A stretch of 5,268 bases of DNA, from positions 1-5,268 of the forward strand of contig RFIY01000193.1 in the NCBI GenBank assembly GCA_003695505.1, given 5' to 3'. Below are positions 1,674 through 5,268 of the stretch, piece after piece. The position numbers and the translations under genes are program-made. Each line of letters opens with the position of its first letter. Position 1 is the first letter of the stretch. A model generated the notes under the pieces. It was not told the DNA's origin and made no database searches. It saw only the letters and a program-made list of their open reading frames with translations. The stretch comes from J088 sp003695505 [NCBI: Candidatus Dadabacteria bacterium] (GTDB taxonomy: Bacteria > J088).

Positions 1674-3239
1674 TCAGTGCTTGAAGTGACGTCGCCCGGT
1701 GAAGATCATCGCCATGCCGTGCTCGTCGGCGGCTGCGATCACCTCTTCGTCGCGTATGCTGCCACCCGGCTGAATGATCGCGGTCGCGCCGGCTTCGGCG
1801 GCGGCATCGACGCCATCGCGGAACGGGAAAAACGCGTCCGACGCCAGCACGGATCCGTTGAGGTCGTGGCCAGCCTGCCCGGCCTTGATGACGGCGATCC
1901 GGCTCGCATCGACGCGTGACATCTGGCCGGCGCCGATGCCGAGCGCCTGTGTGTCACTGGTAAAGACGATCGCGTTCGACTTGACGTGGCGTACGACCTT
2001 CCAGGCAAAGCGCAGCGCGTCGCGTTCGCGATCGGTCGGTTCGCGTCGGCTGACCACCTTCCATTCGGCTTCGTCTGCCGTTTCCCGGTCGGCTTCCTGG
2101 ATCAGCAGGCCACCTGCGACCGAACGCACCTCGAGCTGTTCGCGCATCCCCTCTGGCCACGGATCGACCGTCGCAACCCGAACGTTCTTCTTTTTCGCGA
2201 GGCGCTCGGCCGCGGCCGGTTCAACGGCGGGACAGATGATACATTCGACGAAGGTCGAGGCGATCTCTTCCGCCGTCGCCAGGTCGAGCGGCCGGTTGAG
2301 GGCGATGATGCCGCCAAATGCGCTGACCGGATCGACGTCGCGGGCACGCCGATATGCGTCGACGAGCGAGTCACCAAGCGCCACACCGCATGGATTCGTG
2401 TGTTTGACGACGACCGCCGCCGGGCGTTCGACGCCGAATTCGAGAATCGCGCGCATCGCGCCGTCGAGGTCGAGCAGGTTGTTGTAGCTCAGCTCCTTGC
2501 CCTGGTGTACCGTCAGCGCCGTCAGCCCCCATTTGCGGCCATAGCCGTAAAACGCGGCCTGCTGATGTGGGTTTTCGCCATAACGCAATGGCTGGATGCG
2601 TGGTCCGCCAACGCTGTAGCGCGGGGGCAGCTTCTCGGTACCATAGGCCTGCTGAAAGTGAAGCTGGATCGCCGCATCGTAGCTCGATGTGGCCTGGAAT
2701 GCCTTGACCGCCATCGCGGCCGCGAACGATTCCGAGACGGTGCCGTTGCCTGCTTCGAGCTCCTTGATCAGCGCTTCATAATCCGATGGATCCGCGATGA
2801 CGACGACATCGCGATGGTTCTTCGCGGCCGAGCGAATCATCGTCGGTCCACCGATGTCGATCTTTTCGATCGCGGCGGCCAGGTCGTCGGGATGCGCCTC
2901 TATGGTCTGCTCGAACGGATAGAGGTTGACGACGACCAGATCGATCGGCTCGATGCCGTCCTGTTTCAACAACTCCAGATCCTCGGGCACGTCACGACGG
3001 GCGAGCAGTGCCGCGTGAATCTTCGGATGCAGCGTCTTGACGCGACCCGCGAAAATCTCAGCCTGGCCGGTTACGGACTCAACCGTGTCGATCGTCACGC
3101 CAGCTTCGCTCAGCGCGCGGGCCGTGCCGCCGGTGCTGAGAATGCGCACACCATGGCCTGTCAGCGCCTGTCCCAGCTCCACGACCCCTGTTTTGTCGAA
3201 TACGCTTACCAGCGCCGTACGAATCGGCAGTCGTCGCAT
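1674..3239 (-). CDS. purH: Bifunctional AICAR formyltransferase / IMP cyclohydrolase
   Basis: PurH carries out the last two steps of de novo IMP synthesis: it formylates AICAR with 10-formyl-tetrahydrofolate, then closes the ring. At 521 residues it is full length. The N-terminal MGS-like cyclohydrolase domain (about 4-190) shows STGGTA (35-40), RVKTLHPKIH (66-75), VNLYPF (104-109) and IDIGGPTMIRSAAKNH (127-142). The C-terminal formyltransferase domain shows LRYGENPHQ (218-226), the catalytic Lys-His pair (279-280) in VVVKHTNPCG, DPVSAFGG (303-310), HVKSNAIV (418-425), GAGQMSR (436-442), SDAFFPF (467-473) and QPGGSIRDEE (490-499), ending RRHFKH. All expected residues seem present. The ATG at 3239 is chosen over the one at 3266 because of AAAGGA 9 bases upstream and because the family usually starts just before this segment. 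It follows mlaD by 47 bases and is probably the last gene of that unit. Confidence 0.97.
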   Translation of the reverse strand: MRRLPIRTALVSVFDKTGVVELGQALTGHGVRILSTGGTARALSEAGVTIDTVESVTGQAEIFAGRVKTLHPKIHAALLARRDVPEDLELLKQDGIEPIDLVVVNLYPFEQTIEAHPDDLAAAIEKIDIGGPTMIRSAAKNHRDVVVIADPSDYEALIKELEAGNGTVSESFAAAMAVKAFQATSSYDAAIQLHFQQAYGTEKLPPRYSVGGPRIQPLRYGENPHQQAAFYGYGRKWGLTALTVHQGKELSYNNLLDLDGAMRAILEFGVERPAAVVVKHTNPCGVALGDSLVDAYRRARDVDPVSAFGGIIALNRPLDLATAEEIASTFVECIICPAVEPAAAERLAKKKNVRVATVDPWPEGMREQLEVRSVAGGLLIQEADRETADEAEWKVVSRREPTDRERDALRFAWKVVRHVKSNAIVFTSDTQALGIGAGQMSRVDASRIAVIKAGQAGHDLNGSVLASDAFFPFRDGVDAAAEAGATAIIQPGGSIRDEEVIAAADEHGMAMIFTGRRHFKH

Positions 3240-3248
3240 TGCAGCCTG

Positions 3249-3254
3249 TCCTTT
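3249..3254 (-). promoter_or_regulatory. Ribosome binding site deciding the purH start
   Basis: AAAGGA on the minus strand lies 9 bases before the ATG at 3239. The alternative ATG at 3266 has AAGGG only 2 bases away, which is poor spacing. Confidence 0.6.
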
Positions 3255-3286
3255 CGAGCAAAGCATGACCCTTGACGGGCCGTTGG

Positions 3287-4753
3287 TCAGAATTTGATCG
3301 GCAATGAGCCAAACAGATACTTGAGATCCTGGTCATTGAAGACGATGCCCAGACCAAAACGCGCCTGCGGGCCGCTGCGACCCGCGAGGTCTTCCGCGCC
3401 AGCCGCGATCGTCAGGTGGTTGAACAGTCTCAACTCTGCCCAACTGCGCACCCGCGGCCGGTCGTCGCGGCGATTGAAATCGAACGCCTCGGCGCGCAGC
3501 CAGAGGCGATCGTCGAACAACGCATAGTCGAGACCGATGCCACCGTCGTTCTCGATCACACCGCCGCGCAGGGTCAGATCCCAGAATCGTTTTGCAATGT
3601 AGGCGTTGAACAGCAGATCGCTCTTGCGCTCACGAATCGTTCGCGTCACCGTCGTCACGTTGCCGACGTCGTCGGTCGTGACGATCTCTTCGGTTCGCGT
3701 CGACTCGACTTTCTCGCTGCGGTCTACGATCCCAACGCCGTAATAATGATCATACGATGGCCGGAACGCAACCTCAAACCGGTTTCTGAATCCGTCATCA
3801 CCACCGAAATCCGACGCATAGGTGCCCAGATAGCTGAATTCGGTCTGCAGCTTCGTCACCGCCGCGAGCGTCTGATTCAGGCTGTCGACCGCCTCGCGCA
3901 CATCGTTGGCCGTATCCTCGTCCTTGACGAGCGTACCGACCGTGCCCTCGCCGCGTTCTACCGTTGCAACAACCTGATTGAGCTGAACGGCCGTGTCTTC
4001 GACCAGGCGCGCGATGCGATCGAGGCGCTGCATCGTTTCACTGACCATACTGGCGTAACCACCGACGCTGTCGCCGGTCTTTTTGAAGCGCCCTTTCCAT
4101 TCGTCGATCAGCTCTGGCAGATCGTCACTGAGCGCTTCACTGCCGCGCGAAATGTTGCGGATGAACCGCGAGATGTATTTTTCGTAATCGCTGAGGACCA
4201 GCTCCAGGCTCAGCGCGGTGTGGCGCATCGAATCGATGGTCTCCGGGATGCCGCGCTGGATCTCTTCGCTCGTGACGACCTCGCGCAAATTGGACACCAG
4301 TGAGACCGCCTCGTTGATCAACGGCGTCATCTTCGCCATCATCTCTTCGAGCGGAATCGGCACATATGTGTCTGCAATCGGCTCGCCCTCGGGCAGCTTG
4401 CCGGTCTCGGGCGTTCCCGGGTTCAGCGAAATATAGCGATCGCCGAGGAAGCCGCTGCTGTAGACACTGATCGACGCATCGCGATAAATCTCAACGTCTT
4501 CATCGCGGATGCGGAAACGAACGAGCGCCTTTTGTCCGCCGCGCACGATCTGCATATCGATAATCCGTCCGACTTCGATGCCGGCAATCTCAACCGGGGA
4601 ATCGACACCCAGCGCGTGCGCCGTGTCGAGCATCGCCTCGTAGGTTCGCCCCTGTGAAAACCAGATCTCGAATTTGCCGACGTAGAACGACGCCCAGAAC
4701 AAAATTGCCGTTGTCAGCAGTACGAACAGTCCCGTTTTTGCTTCGCGGCTCAT
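3287..4753 (-). CDS. mlaD: MlaD-type MCE lipid-transport protein with a beta-rich C-terminal domain
   Basis: Predicted lipid-binding, tunnel-forming subunit of an ABC/MCE transporter, anchored in the inner membrane and exposed to the periplasm. The 488 residues divide into a single transmembrane helix (about 8-25, after MSREAKTG), an MCE domain (about 36-113) with ALGVDSPVEIAGIEVGRI and SSGFLGDRYISLNPG, a long helical region (about 134-305) beginning IPLEEMMAKMTPL, and a beta-rich tail (about 306-488) ending in Phe. Enteric MlaD is under 200 residues, so both the helical region and the tail are extra. The ATG at 4753 overlaps the mlaF stop as ATGA and sits directly before the membrane helix; a 44-residue upstream extension in the same frame lies inside mlaF and is unlikely. 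Subfamily is sure; calling the tail outer-membrane-like is inference. Confidence 0.9.
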   Translation of the reverse strand: MSREAKTGLFVLLTTAILFWASFYVGKFEIWFSQGRTYEAMLDTAHALGVDSPVEIAGIEVGRIIDMQIVRGGQKALVRFRIRDEDVEIYRDASISVYSSGFLGDRYISLNPGTPETGKLPEGEPIADTYVPIPLEEMMAKMTPLINEAVSLVSNLREVVTSEEIQRGIPETIDSMRHTALSLELVLSDYEKYISRFIRNISRGSEALSDDLPELIDEWKGRFKKTGDSVGGYASMVSETMQRLDRIARLVEDTAVQLNQVVATVERGEGTVGTLVKDEDTANDVREAVDSLNQTLAAVTKLQTEFSYLGTYASDFGGDDGFRNRFEVAFRPSYDHYYGVGIVDRSEKVESTRTEEIVTTDDVGNVTTVTRTIRERKSDLLFNAYIAKRFWDLTLRGGVIENDGGIGLDYALFDDRLWLRAEAFDFNRRDDRPRVRSWAELRLFNHLTIAAGAEDLAGRSGPQARFGLGIVFNDQDLKYLFGSLPIKF

Positions 4754-5268
4754 GCGCGCTGTCCGTCCGGTCCGGTGGGAAGATTCAGGACGCGTGGGTC
4801 GCGATCCAGGAATCCGCGGATAATGGGATCGTGGGAGGCCTCGAATTCGCCCGGCGTGCCGATCGCGTGAATCCGGCCACGCCACAACAGCGCTACCCGC
4901 GAGGCCAGTCGCTGTGCCAGTTCCCAGTGGTGAGTGATGACGAGGCCAGTATAGCCAAAGTCCCGATGCGTTTCCATGATGAGGTCCTCGATCACGGCCG
5001 CAGTGACCGGGTCGAGGCCGGATGTCGGCTCATCGAAATAGAGGATATCGGGTTCCAGCGCGAGACTGCGCGCAATGCCGACGCGCTTGCGCATGCCGCC
5101 AGAGAGTTCGGACGGCATACGATCGCCCCGACCTTCGAGCTGGACGCGCCGAAGAAGATCCTCAACGGTCGCGGCGATATCCGCCTCACTGCGATCGGTG
5201 TGTTCGCGCAATGGGAAGGCAATGTTATCCGCGGCCGTCATGGAATCGAACAGCGCCGCGTACTGAAA
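4750..5268 (-). CDS. mlaF: MlaF-type ABC transporter ATPase, partial (N-terminus off the right edge)
   Basis: Cytoplasmic ATPase that powers the MCE lipid transporter together with the permease MlaE. The frame stays open to base 5268, so the ATG at 5241 is internal. The 172 visible residues start at the Q-loop (FQYAALFDSMTAADNIAFPL), and the Walker A motif lies outside the window. The signature LSGGMRKRVGIARSLAL (55-71), Walker B ILYFDEP (75-81), D-loop SGLDP (83-87) and switch His113 are present. FQ-ALFDSMT-DN-AFPLREHT is typical of MlaF rather than of other importers. After the switch histidine the usual Asp is replaced by a second His (ITHHWELAQ). The stop overlaps the mlaD start by 4 bases, so the two are probably coupled. 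mlaE is expected next upstream. Confidence 0.92.
   Translation of the reverse strand, partial: FQYAALFDSMTAADNIAFPLREHTDRSEADIAATVEDLLRRVQLEGRGDRMPSELSGGMRKRVGIARSLALEPDILYFDEPTSGLDPVTAAVIEDLIMETHRDFGYTGLVITHHWELAQRLASRVALLWRGRIHAIGTPGEFEASHDPIIRGFLDRDPRVLNLPTGPDGQRA

What the first reader, a model, noticed from the sequence alone, without database searches (positions are those of the whole stretch)
3290..3841. MlaD carries a C-terminal outer-membrane-like beta domain
After the MCE domain and helical stretch, about residues 306-488 change to alternating polar/hydrophobic strands with turns rich in Gly, Asp and Asn: for example RFEVAFRPS, HYYGVGIVD, LLFNAYIAKRF, LTLRGGVI, IGLDYALF, LWLRAEAFDF, SWAELRLF, LTIAAGAED and RFGLGIVFND. 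Roughly nine or ten candidate strands suggest a barrel or half-barrel. This could let an inner-membrane MCE protein dock in or form an outer-membrane pore, giving a one-protein bridge instead of the separate MlaA-MlaC outer parts. I recall similar tails in MCE proteins from delta-proteobacterial lineages, so it may be a lineage trait rather than unique.
Basis: partly seen in the sequence, partly recalled or inferred. Interest (0 to 1): 0.65.

Follow-up and report, generated by a model that had tools for sequence, protein, structure and literature searches.

The report
Lipid-transport protein with outer-membrane barrel
The gene encodes a bacterial lipid-transport protein that carries its own predicted ten-stranded outer-membrane barrel at one end, a real feature that may let one protein link both cell membranes, but of a kind already described in another bacterium in 2023 and common in the genomes sampled here.

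Summary
The 488-aa MlaD (minus strand, 4753-3287) has a TM helix, an MCE domain, a helical region and a C-terminal domain, residues 303-473. AlphaFold2 with 69 tails predicts ten strands (mean pLDDT 91). The best second-look PDB matches are outer-membrane barrels: OpcA Z 16.9, designed TMB10_163 Z 15.6 at 2.4 Å. Each of eight strands has one almost charge-free face and one charged face, and the last strand fits a relaxed BAM signal.

The bridge reading rests on analogy: Grasekamp et al. 2023 (PMC10665443) described this architecture in Veillonella, fractionated its parts to the two membranes and mapped it across diderms. The tail matches 90 of 290 sampled genomes (65 at 60 bits or more) and 78 named loci, 63 of them behind mlaE-mlaF. 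Replacement of MlaA and MlaC is not borne out as a rule: MlaA is missing from 85 of 90 tail genomes but is rare anyway, and MlaC is not depleted. A simple pore is unlikely, given the small barrel with a conserved charged, Gly-rich inner face. New member of a known kind. Extras: stand-alone homologues of the barrel with a signal-peptide-like start; mlaD-purH synteny.

The parts
3287..4753 (-). mlaD gene, 488 aa (long, barrel-bearing MlaD), stop codon included
   Evidence: ORF and translation; Pfam PF02470 MlaD 58.8 bits, cut-off 25.1
4679..4747 (-). N-terminal transmembrane helix, residues 3-25 (inner-membrane anchor)
   Evidence: AlphaFold2 full-length model: helix 3-25, mean pLDDT 91-93 for residues 1-20, 65 for 21-30; aligned with MlaD chains of MlaFEDB structures from residue 1
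4415..4651 (-). MCE (MlaD) domain, residues 35-113
   Evidence: PF02470 match 35-113; E. coli MlaD core 5uw8_D Z 17.1, rmsd 1.9 over 100 residues
3854..4351 (-). helical region, residues 135-300, presumed periplasm-spanning segment
   Evidence: helices 135-159, 163-225, 231-267, 279-300, but pLDDT blocks only 38-69; MCE-to-barrel linker 187 residues here, mean 182, sd 20 in 74 of 78 loci
3335..3847 (-). C-terminal ten-stranded barrel domain, residues 303-473
   Evidence: tail model pLDDT 91.1, ten strands; fold matches; strand-face, loop and beta-signal analysis
3308..3334 (-). short helix after the last strand (residues 474-482)
   Evidence: DSSP on the tail model, 474-483 in the full-length model; conserved D.DLK in the alignment
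4750..5268 (-). mlaF (ABC ATPase), cut at its 5' end by the contig edge
   Evidence: PF00005 46.9 bits; mlaE-mlaF-mlaD order in 63 of 78 homologous loci
1674..3266 (-). purH, directly downstream of mlaD (neighbour, not part of the system)
   Evidence: PF01808 and PF02142; purH within 250 bases downstream of mlaD in 12 of 78 loci

Best explanation
This is a long MlaD of the transenvelope type. MlaD is anchored in the inner membrane by its N-terminal helix and, with MlaE and MlaF, forms the usual MCE hexamer. Its helical region crosses the periplasm as a tunnel or stalk, and each C-terminal ten-stranded barrel is inserted by BAM into the outer membrane, where it anchors the tube. Phospholipid would then move between the membranes along the tube, powered by MlaF, without needing an MlaA dock. 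Shown here: domain order, prediction of a ten-stranded barrel with sequence support for outer-membrane type, linkage to mlaF (and to mlaE in relatives), wide conservation. Inferred: insertion into the outer membrane, hexamer, lipid cargo, direction, and that the barrel is anchor or dock rather than pore.
For: Tail model: ten strands, pLDDT 91.1, the strand count given for V. parvula MlaD. Best second-look PDB matches: OpcA (Z 16.9), designed transmembrane TMB10_163 (Z 15.6, rmsd 2.4 over 136), a Legionella porin (15.4), Pla (15.1). In 8 of 10 strands one face is 67-82% large hydrophobic with 0-1% charge, the other 20-46% charged; 0 of 10,000 shuffles reach this. If the N-terminus of the domain is periplasmic, the four inner turns are short and nearly fixed (sd 0.0-0.6), while outer hairpin 3-4 (sd 10.5 for its inner part) and loops 7-8 and 9-10 (sd 2.0) vary. 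In-strand positions conserved at 85% or more all lie on the charged face (10 of 46 against 0 of 46, p = 0.001), as for a packed polar interior with lipid outside. Last strand fits a relaxed beta-signal in 68 of 69 tails. mlaE-mlaF upstream in 63 of 78 loci. All 90 genomes with a tail match also have an MCE match. Published precedent with fractionation.
Against: Foldseek's own scores are modest: best E 2.9e-4, TM-scores by query 0.47-0.53 for TMB10_163 and mostly 0.23-0.42 in the other rows shown. Soluble nitrobindins match at Z 12-13, as high as OmpT at 11.5-12.4. MlaC is not depleted in tail genomes and is enriched among the 65 strong ones (p = 0.039); MlaA depletion is p = 0.052 over all 90 and p = 0.48 for the 65; none corrected for phylogeny. 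Two tail genomes of one family (G079, G221) carry MlaA and MlaC but no other MCE protein. Helical region modelled at pLDDT 38-69. Strands 3-4 taken whole show no clean face alternation, loop 5-6 is two residues and invariant, mean entropy does not differ between faces (p = 0.52; 0.16 for strands 5-10). Strict beta-signal with a polar first residue: 3 of 69. No hexamer was modelled, and homology to the Veillonella barrel was not tested.
Confidence: 0.82

Rival explanations
1. The tail is a soluble periplasmic ten-stranded barrel of the nitrobindin/calycin type that binds lipid at the far end of the MCE tube, like an attached MlaC.
For: Nitrobindin and Rv2717c align with the tail at Z 12-13, rmsd 3.5-3.7 over about 140 residues, as well as OmpT does.
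Against: OpcA, TMB10_163 and Pla score higher (Z 15-17). Conserved in-strand positions lie on the charged face, not the hydrophobic one, the reverse of what a ligand cavity would give (10 of 46 against 0 of 46). By inspection aromatic residues gather at strand ends; the last strand fits a relaxed beta-signal. The Veillonella barrel went to outer-membrane fractions. MlaC is not rarer where the tail is present.
Confidence: 0.09
2. The barrel is a true outer-membrane pore through which lipid passes to or from the outer leaflet; several barrels together make the opening.
For: It is predicted as a complete barrel, and Grasekamp et al. suggest that several barrels might fuse as in TolC.
Against: Each chain has a full ten-stranded barrel whose inner face carries conserved Arg, Asp and Gly, and the 2023 authors state that the Veillonella barrel is too narrow for phospholipid and a ring of six seems unlikely. 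No oligomer was modelled here.
Confidence: 0.12
3. The tail is a remnant or low-value lineage extension without a role in transport.
For: The 2023 survey found a complete barrel in only about 10% of MlaD sequences, and the Aminicenantes tails here lack most of hairpin 3-4.
Against: Conserved Gly, Arg and Asp positions across phyla; of the 94 matches listed one contains a stop, and one further gene (G221) is split over two frames.
Confidence: 0.04

Closest known systems
Long, transenvelope MlaD of Veillonella parvula (Grasekamp et al. 2023, PMC10665443)
   Same: TM helix, MCE domain, long helical region, C-terminal ten-stranded barrel; mlaF directly upstream.
   Different: 488 aa against 419 aa; long hairpin 3-4 and a short helix after the last strand (the paper mentions helical extensions in some sequences); followed by purH, whereas Veillonella has tolC and tamB homologues there. 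Sequence homology between the two barrels was not tested here.
Canonical short MlaD of E. coli (MlaFEDB)
   Same: TM helix and MCE domain (5uw8_D Z 17.1); ABC partner MlaF.
   Different: E. coli MlaD (183 aa) ends with a short helical part after the MCE domain and works with MlaC and MlaA; here a long helical region and a barrel follow.
PqiB, LetB and Mce1 periplasm-spanning MCE tubes
   Same: MCE proteins long enough to cross the periplasm; the 16-row profile matches Mce1 chain 8fed_B over positions 12-268.
   Different: PqiB has three MCE rings and LetB more (recalled); Mce1 chains give one strand each to a shared barrel. Here each chain carries its own ten-stranded barrel.
Outer-membrane barrels OpcA, OmpT/Pla and designed TMB10_163 (ten strands, recalled)
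   Same: Overall fold of the tail (Z 11-17).
   Different: Sequence identity 6-10%; fused to an MCE protein; adhesin or protease function was not looked for.

Membership tests
MCE / MlaD family (PF02470) | MCE domain above the curated score | tested here: met
   58.8 bits against cut-off 25.1; fold match to E. coli MlaD
Long transenvelope MlaD (Grasekamp et al. 2023) | TM helix + MCE + long helical region + C-terminal ten-stranded barrel in one chain | tested here: met
   models (helical region at low confidence); barrel matches; predictions only
Long transenvelope MlaD (Grasekamp et al. 2023) | linked to mlaF | tested here: met
   mlaF directly upstream in the window
Long transenvelope MlaD (Grasekamp et al. 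2023) | linked to mlaE | tested here: inconclusive
   the contig ends inside mlaF; mlaE-mlaF-mlaD order in 63 of 78 homologous loci; three MlaE genes elsewhere in the genome
Long transenvelope MlaD (Grasekamp et al. 2023) | genome without MlaA and MlaC | tested here: inconclusive
   own genome: no MlaA match, MlaC only a 20.9-bit match under the cut-off with two stops, but the genome is 84.5% complete
Long transenvelope MlaD (Grasekamp et al. 2023) | barrel located in the outer membrane | not testable with these tools
   needs fractionation; sequence features point that way
Long transenvelope MlaD (Grasekamp et al. 2023) | barrel homologous in sequence to that of V. parvula | not tested
   the V. 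parvula sequence was not among the loci obtained
Canonical MlaD (NCBIfam TIGR04430) | score over the equivalog cut-off | tested here: not met
   78.9 bits against 135
Outer-membrane beta-barrels | BAM beta-signal in the last strand (motif recalled) | tested here: met
   window RFGLGIVF fits; relaxed pattern in 68 of 69 tails, strict polar first residue in 3 of 69
Outer-membrane beta-barrels | short periplasmic turns, longer variable outer loops | tested here: met
   sides assigned by assuming a periplasmic N-terminus; exception: loop 5-6 is two residues and invariant

The most novel reading that the evidence does not exclude
The tail is a still unnamed outer-membrane module (no Pfam model matched any of 69 tails, no NCBIfam model the window tail) that also exists on its own: in two genomes of one family (G074, G217) a roughly 200-residue copy with a signal-peptide-like start and no MCE domain is encoded besides an MCE-fused 424-aa copy on another contig. 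With its conserved inner Arg396, Asp409 and glycines it would be a docking barrel for MCE tubes. Because it often shares genomes with MlaC, and in one family with MlaA and MlaC and no other MCE protein, barrel and soluble shuttle may work together rather than replace each other.
Probability: 0.27. Interest if true: 0.5.

Novelty: new member of a known kind. Interest (0 to 1): 0.27.

Why it matters
How phospholipid crosses the periplasm outside the E. coli model is an open question. The survey finds one recognisable barrel domain in 90 of 290 sampled genomes (65 at 60 bits or more), which fits the 2023 view that the E. coli arrangement is not the general one. It gives a profile and conserved residues (Arg396, Asp409, several glycines) for mutation tests, and it weakens the simple idea that the barrel replaces MlaA and MlaC. 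As a finding about this window it is ordinary for its kind.

Tried and rejected
Half-barrel or disordered tail: not what the model shows. Known barrel family by sequence: no match in Pfam for 69 tails at E 0.01, in NCBIfam for the window tail at E 0.1, or among PDB sequences with a 12-row tail profile at E 10. A first genome-contig scan with the single protein found no relative; alignment A4 succeeded. The full-length fold search listed MCE or barrel matches but no chain with both in its 50 rows. Omp85 presence carries no information because 272 of 290 genomes have it. Mean column entropy did not separate the two strand faces.

Tail counts: the profile search used E 0.001; 25 of the 90 genomes have a best match under 60 bits, many covering only part of the profile. 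At least three of the 290 genomes (the own one, and two whose contigs recur among the profile rows: G020 as L060, G044 as L053) match by construction. That tail and MCE domain share one frame was seen in the loci aligned, not checked for all 90.

Literature: judging from titles and abstract starts, searches listed no other paper on barrel-bearing MlaD than Grasekamp et al. Of that paper I saw the abstract, found passages, sections 8 and 9 and part 1 of section 10 (discussion), not its supplements. The other papers were seen as listings only.

Rows dropped: A7 holds 68 of the 78 tails (left out: L066 as extended, L104 as partial, and by eye as alike L108, L111, L113, L115-L118, L120); A8 holds 55 of 78. 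In one search two of three queries labelled MlaE were in fact the MCE frame of contig C376; one search repeats the count with true MlaE queries and gives the same 63 of 78. The fused copies in G074 and G217 were confirmed.

Full report
What is in the window. The window is a whole contig (C255, 5268 bases) of a draft genome, 84.5% complete; every other genome listed for it is related only at the level of the domain. On the minus strand lie mlaF (cut by the contig edge), mlaD (4753-3287, 488 aa) and purH (3266-1674); on the plus strand a class IV aminotransferase and a cupin.

Observation. AlphaFold2 on the tail with 69 sequences gives mean pLDDT 91.1, pTM 0.80 and ten strands. The full-length model (56 sequences, mean pLDDT 76.4, pTM 0.46) agrees on strand limits to within a residue, with strands 3 and 4 each broken once, after a TM helix, an MCE domain and helices at residues 135-300 modelled at low confidence.

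Is it an outer-membrane barrel? Foldseek alone gives modest scores (best E 2.9e-4, NspA; TM by query 0.47-0.53 for TMB10_163, mostly 0.23-0.42 in the other rows shown). In the second look at 999 chains the top rows are OpcA (Z 16.9, rmsd 4.8 over 157), designed TMB10_163 (Z 15.6, rmsd 2.4 over 136), a Legionella porin (Z 15.4) and Pla (Z 15.1); OmpT is at 11.5-12.4, and soluble nitrobindins at 12-13. So fold alone does not settle outer membrane against soluble. Four sequence features help. (a) In eight strands one face has 67-82% large hydrophobic residues and 0-1% charge, the other 20-46% charge; strands 3-4 as a whole do not show this cleanly, as their far parts form a polar hairpin. No shuffle of 10,000 reached the observed contrast. 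(b) All ten in-strand positions conserved at 85% or more are on the charged face (10 of 46 against 0 of 46): Arg396, Gly398, Ile400, Gly405, Gly407, Asp409, Phe424, Gly452, Gly467, Gly469. This fits a packed interior with lipid outside and argues against a soluble barrel with a hydrophobic cavity. Mean entropy does not differ significantly. (c) With a periplasmic N-terminus assumed, inner turns 2-3, 4-5, 6-7 and 8-9 are short with sd 0.0-0.6; outer hairpin 3-4 (sd 10.5 for its inner part) and loops 7-8 and 9-10 (sd 2.0) vary, loop 1-2 varies little (sd 0.9) and loop 5-6 is fixed. (d) The last strand fits a relaxed beta-signal in 68 of 69 tails, the strict form in 3 of 69 (motif recalled).

How common is it? 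A profile of the tail matched 90 of 290 sampled genomes at E 0.001, 65 of them at 60 bits or more; all 90 also have an MCE match. A scan of named genomes gave 78 loci from Deltaproteobacteria in the old sense, Bdellovibrio relatives, Campylobacterales, Acidobacteria including Aminicenantes, Nitrospirae and Schekmanbacteria, by record title. In 63 of 78 the order mlaE-mlaF-mlaD holds; 3 have only mlaF, 2 only mlaE, 10 neither, four of these at contig ends. The MCE-to-barrel linker is 187 residues here and 182 (sd 20) in 74 of 78, about 27-28 nm if fully helical, which is my arithmetic.

Does it replace MlaA and MlaC? Among 235 genomes with an MCE match, MlaA occurs in 5 of 90 with the tail and 20 of 145 without (Fisher p = 0.052); MlaC in 22 of 90 and 34 of 145 (p = 0.88). 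Counting only the 65 strong tail matches, MlaA is 5 of 65 against 20 of 170 (p = 0.48) and MlaC 22 of 65 against 34 of 170 (p = 0.039, enriched). None is corrected for phylogeny. Three of the five tail genomes with MlaA (G091, G244, G286) have another MCE gene close to MlaA; two, of one family (G079, G221), have MlaA and MlaC but only the barrel MlaD. So most tail genomes lack MlaA, but so do most others, and MlaC often coexists. The own genome has no MlaA match and only a sub-threshold MlaC match with stops, but it is incomplete.

Prior knowledge. Grasekamp et al. 2023 (PMC10665443) describe this architecture in V. parvula: ten-stranded C-terminal barrel, AF2 models, fractionation of the barrel to the outer membrane and of the TM-MCE part to the inner membrane, a model length of about 23.5 nm, and 103 barrel-bearing MlaD sequences across diderms, which they say tend to go with absence of MlaA and MlaC. 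They judge the barrel too narrow for phospholipid. My searches listed no other paper on barrel-bearing MlaD in the held library, judged from titles and abstract starts.

Verdict. The finding is real, and its bridge reading is plausible by close analogy. The pore reading is unlikely in its simple form, and the replacement of MlaA and MlaC is not a rule in this sample. It is a new member of a known kind. What may be new is small: the barrel as a profile with conserved inner residues; stand-alone copies with a signal-peptide-like start in two genomes (profile E 2.8e-17 and 4.1e-15; hhalign probability 98.9 for one) beside MCE-fused copies of 424 aa; and the family with MlaA, MlaC and barrel MlaD only.

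Noticed in passing
L126:4810-5463 (-) and L125:595-1287 (+): Stand-alone homologues of the MlaD barrel (frames of 218 and 231 codons) with a signal-peptide-like start and no Pfam match, in two genomes of one family, among genes that look by eye like glycosyltransferases and radical-SAM proteins. Both genomes also have an MCE-fused copy (L135, L136).
   Followed up: partly
window:1674-4753 and L058, L064, L067-L070, L077, L079, L082, L090, L094, L103: purH lies directly downstream of barrel-bearing mlaD in the window and in 12 of 78 homologous loci; L044 has a purD-like gene there (named by eye).
   Followed up: partly
G079 and G221 (same family), whole genomes: MlaA and MlaC side by side, but the only MCE protein found is the barrel-bearing MlaD; in G221 it is split over two frames.
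   Followed up: partly
290 sampled genomes: MlaC is more frequent in genomes with a strong tail match (22 of 65) than in other MCE genomes (34 of 170), p = 0.039 without correction for phylogeny.
   Followed up: no
L034:3514-5968 and L035:2-2588 (own genome, contigs C33 and C376): Two more MCE genes that the tail profile does not match; on C376 two tandem mlaE genes precede the MCE gene, reminiscent of the mycobacterial yrbEA-yrbEB pair (recalled).
   Followed up: no
window:222-298: Two copies (28 nt, 86% alike, 49 apart) holding TATGTCAA-N2-ATATTGAC, the first a perfect palindrome with 9-nt arms, between a divergent MarR-like gene (1-240, 26.6 bits against cut-off 27) and the class IV aminotransferase gene; likely an operator.
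   Followed up: partly
L071, L074, L078, L086, L087: Campylobacterota homologues have barrel-bearing mlaD without an mlaE or mlaF detected by tblastn in the 3.5 kb searched upstream.
   Followed up: no
L100-L102, L104-L109, L111-L121: Tails of Aminicenantes/Acidobacteria and one unassigned bacterium are about 145 residues; the rows shown lack most of hairpin 3-4 and the end helix.
   Followed up: no
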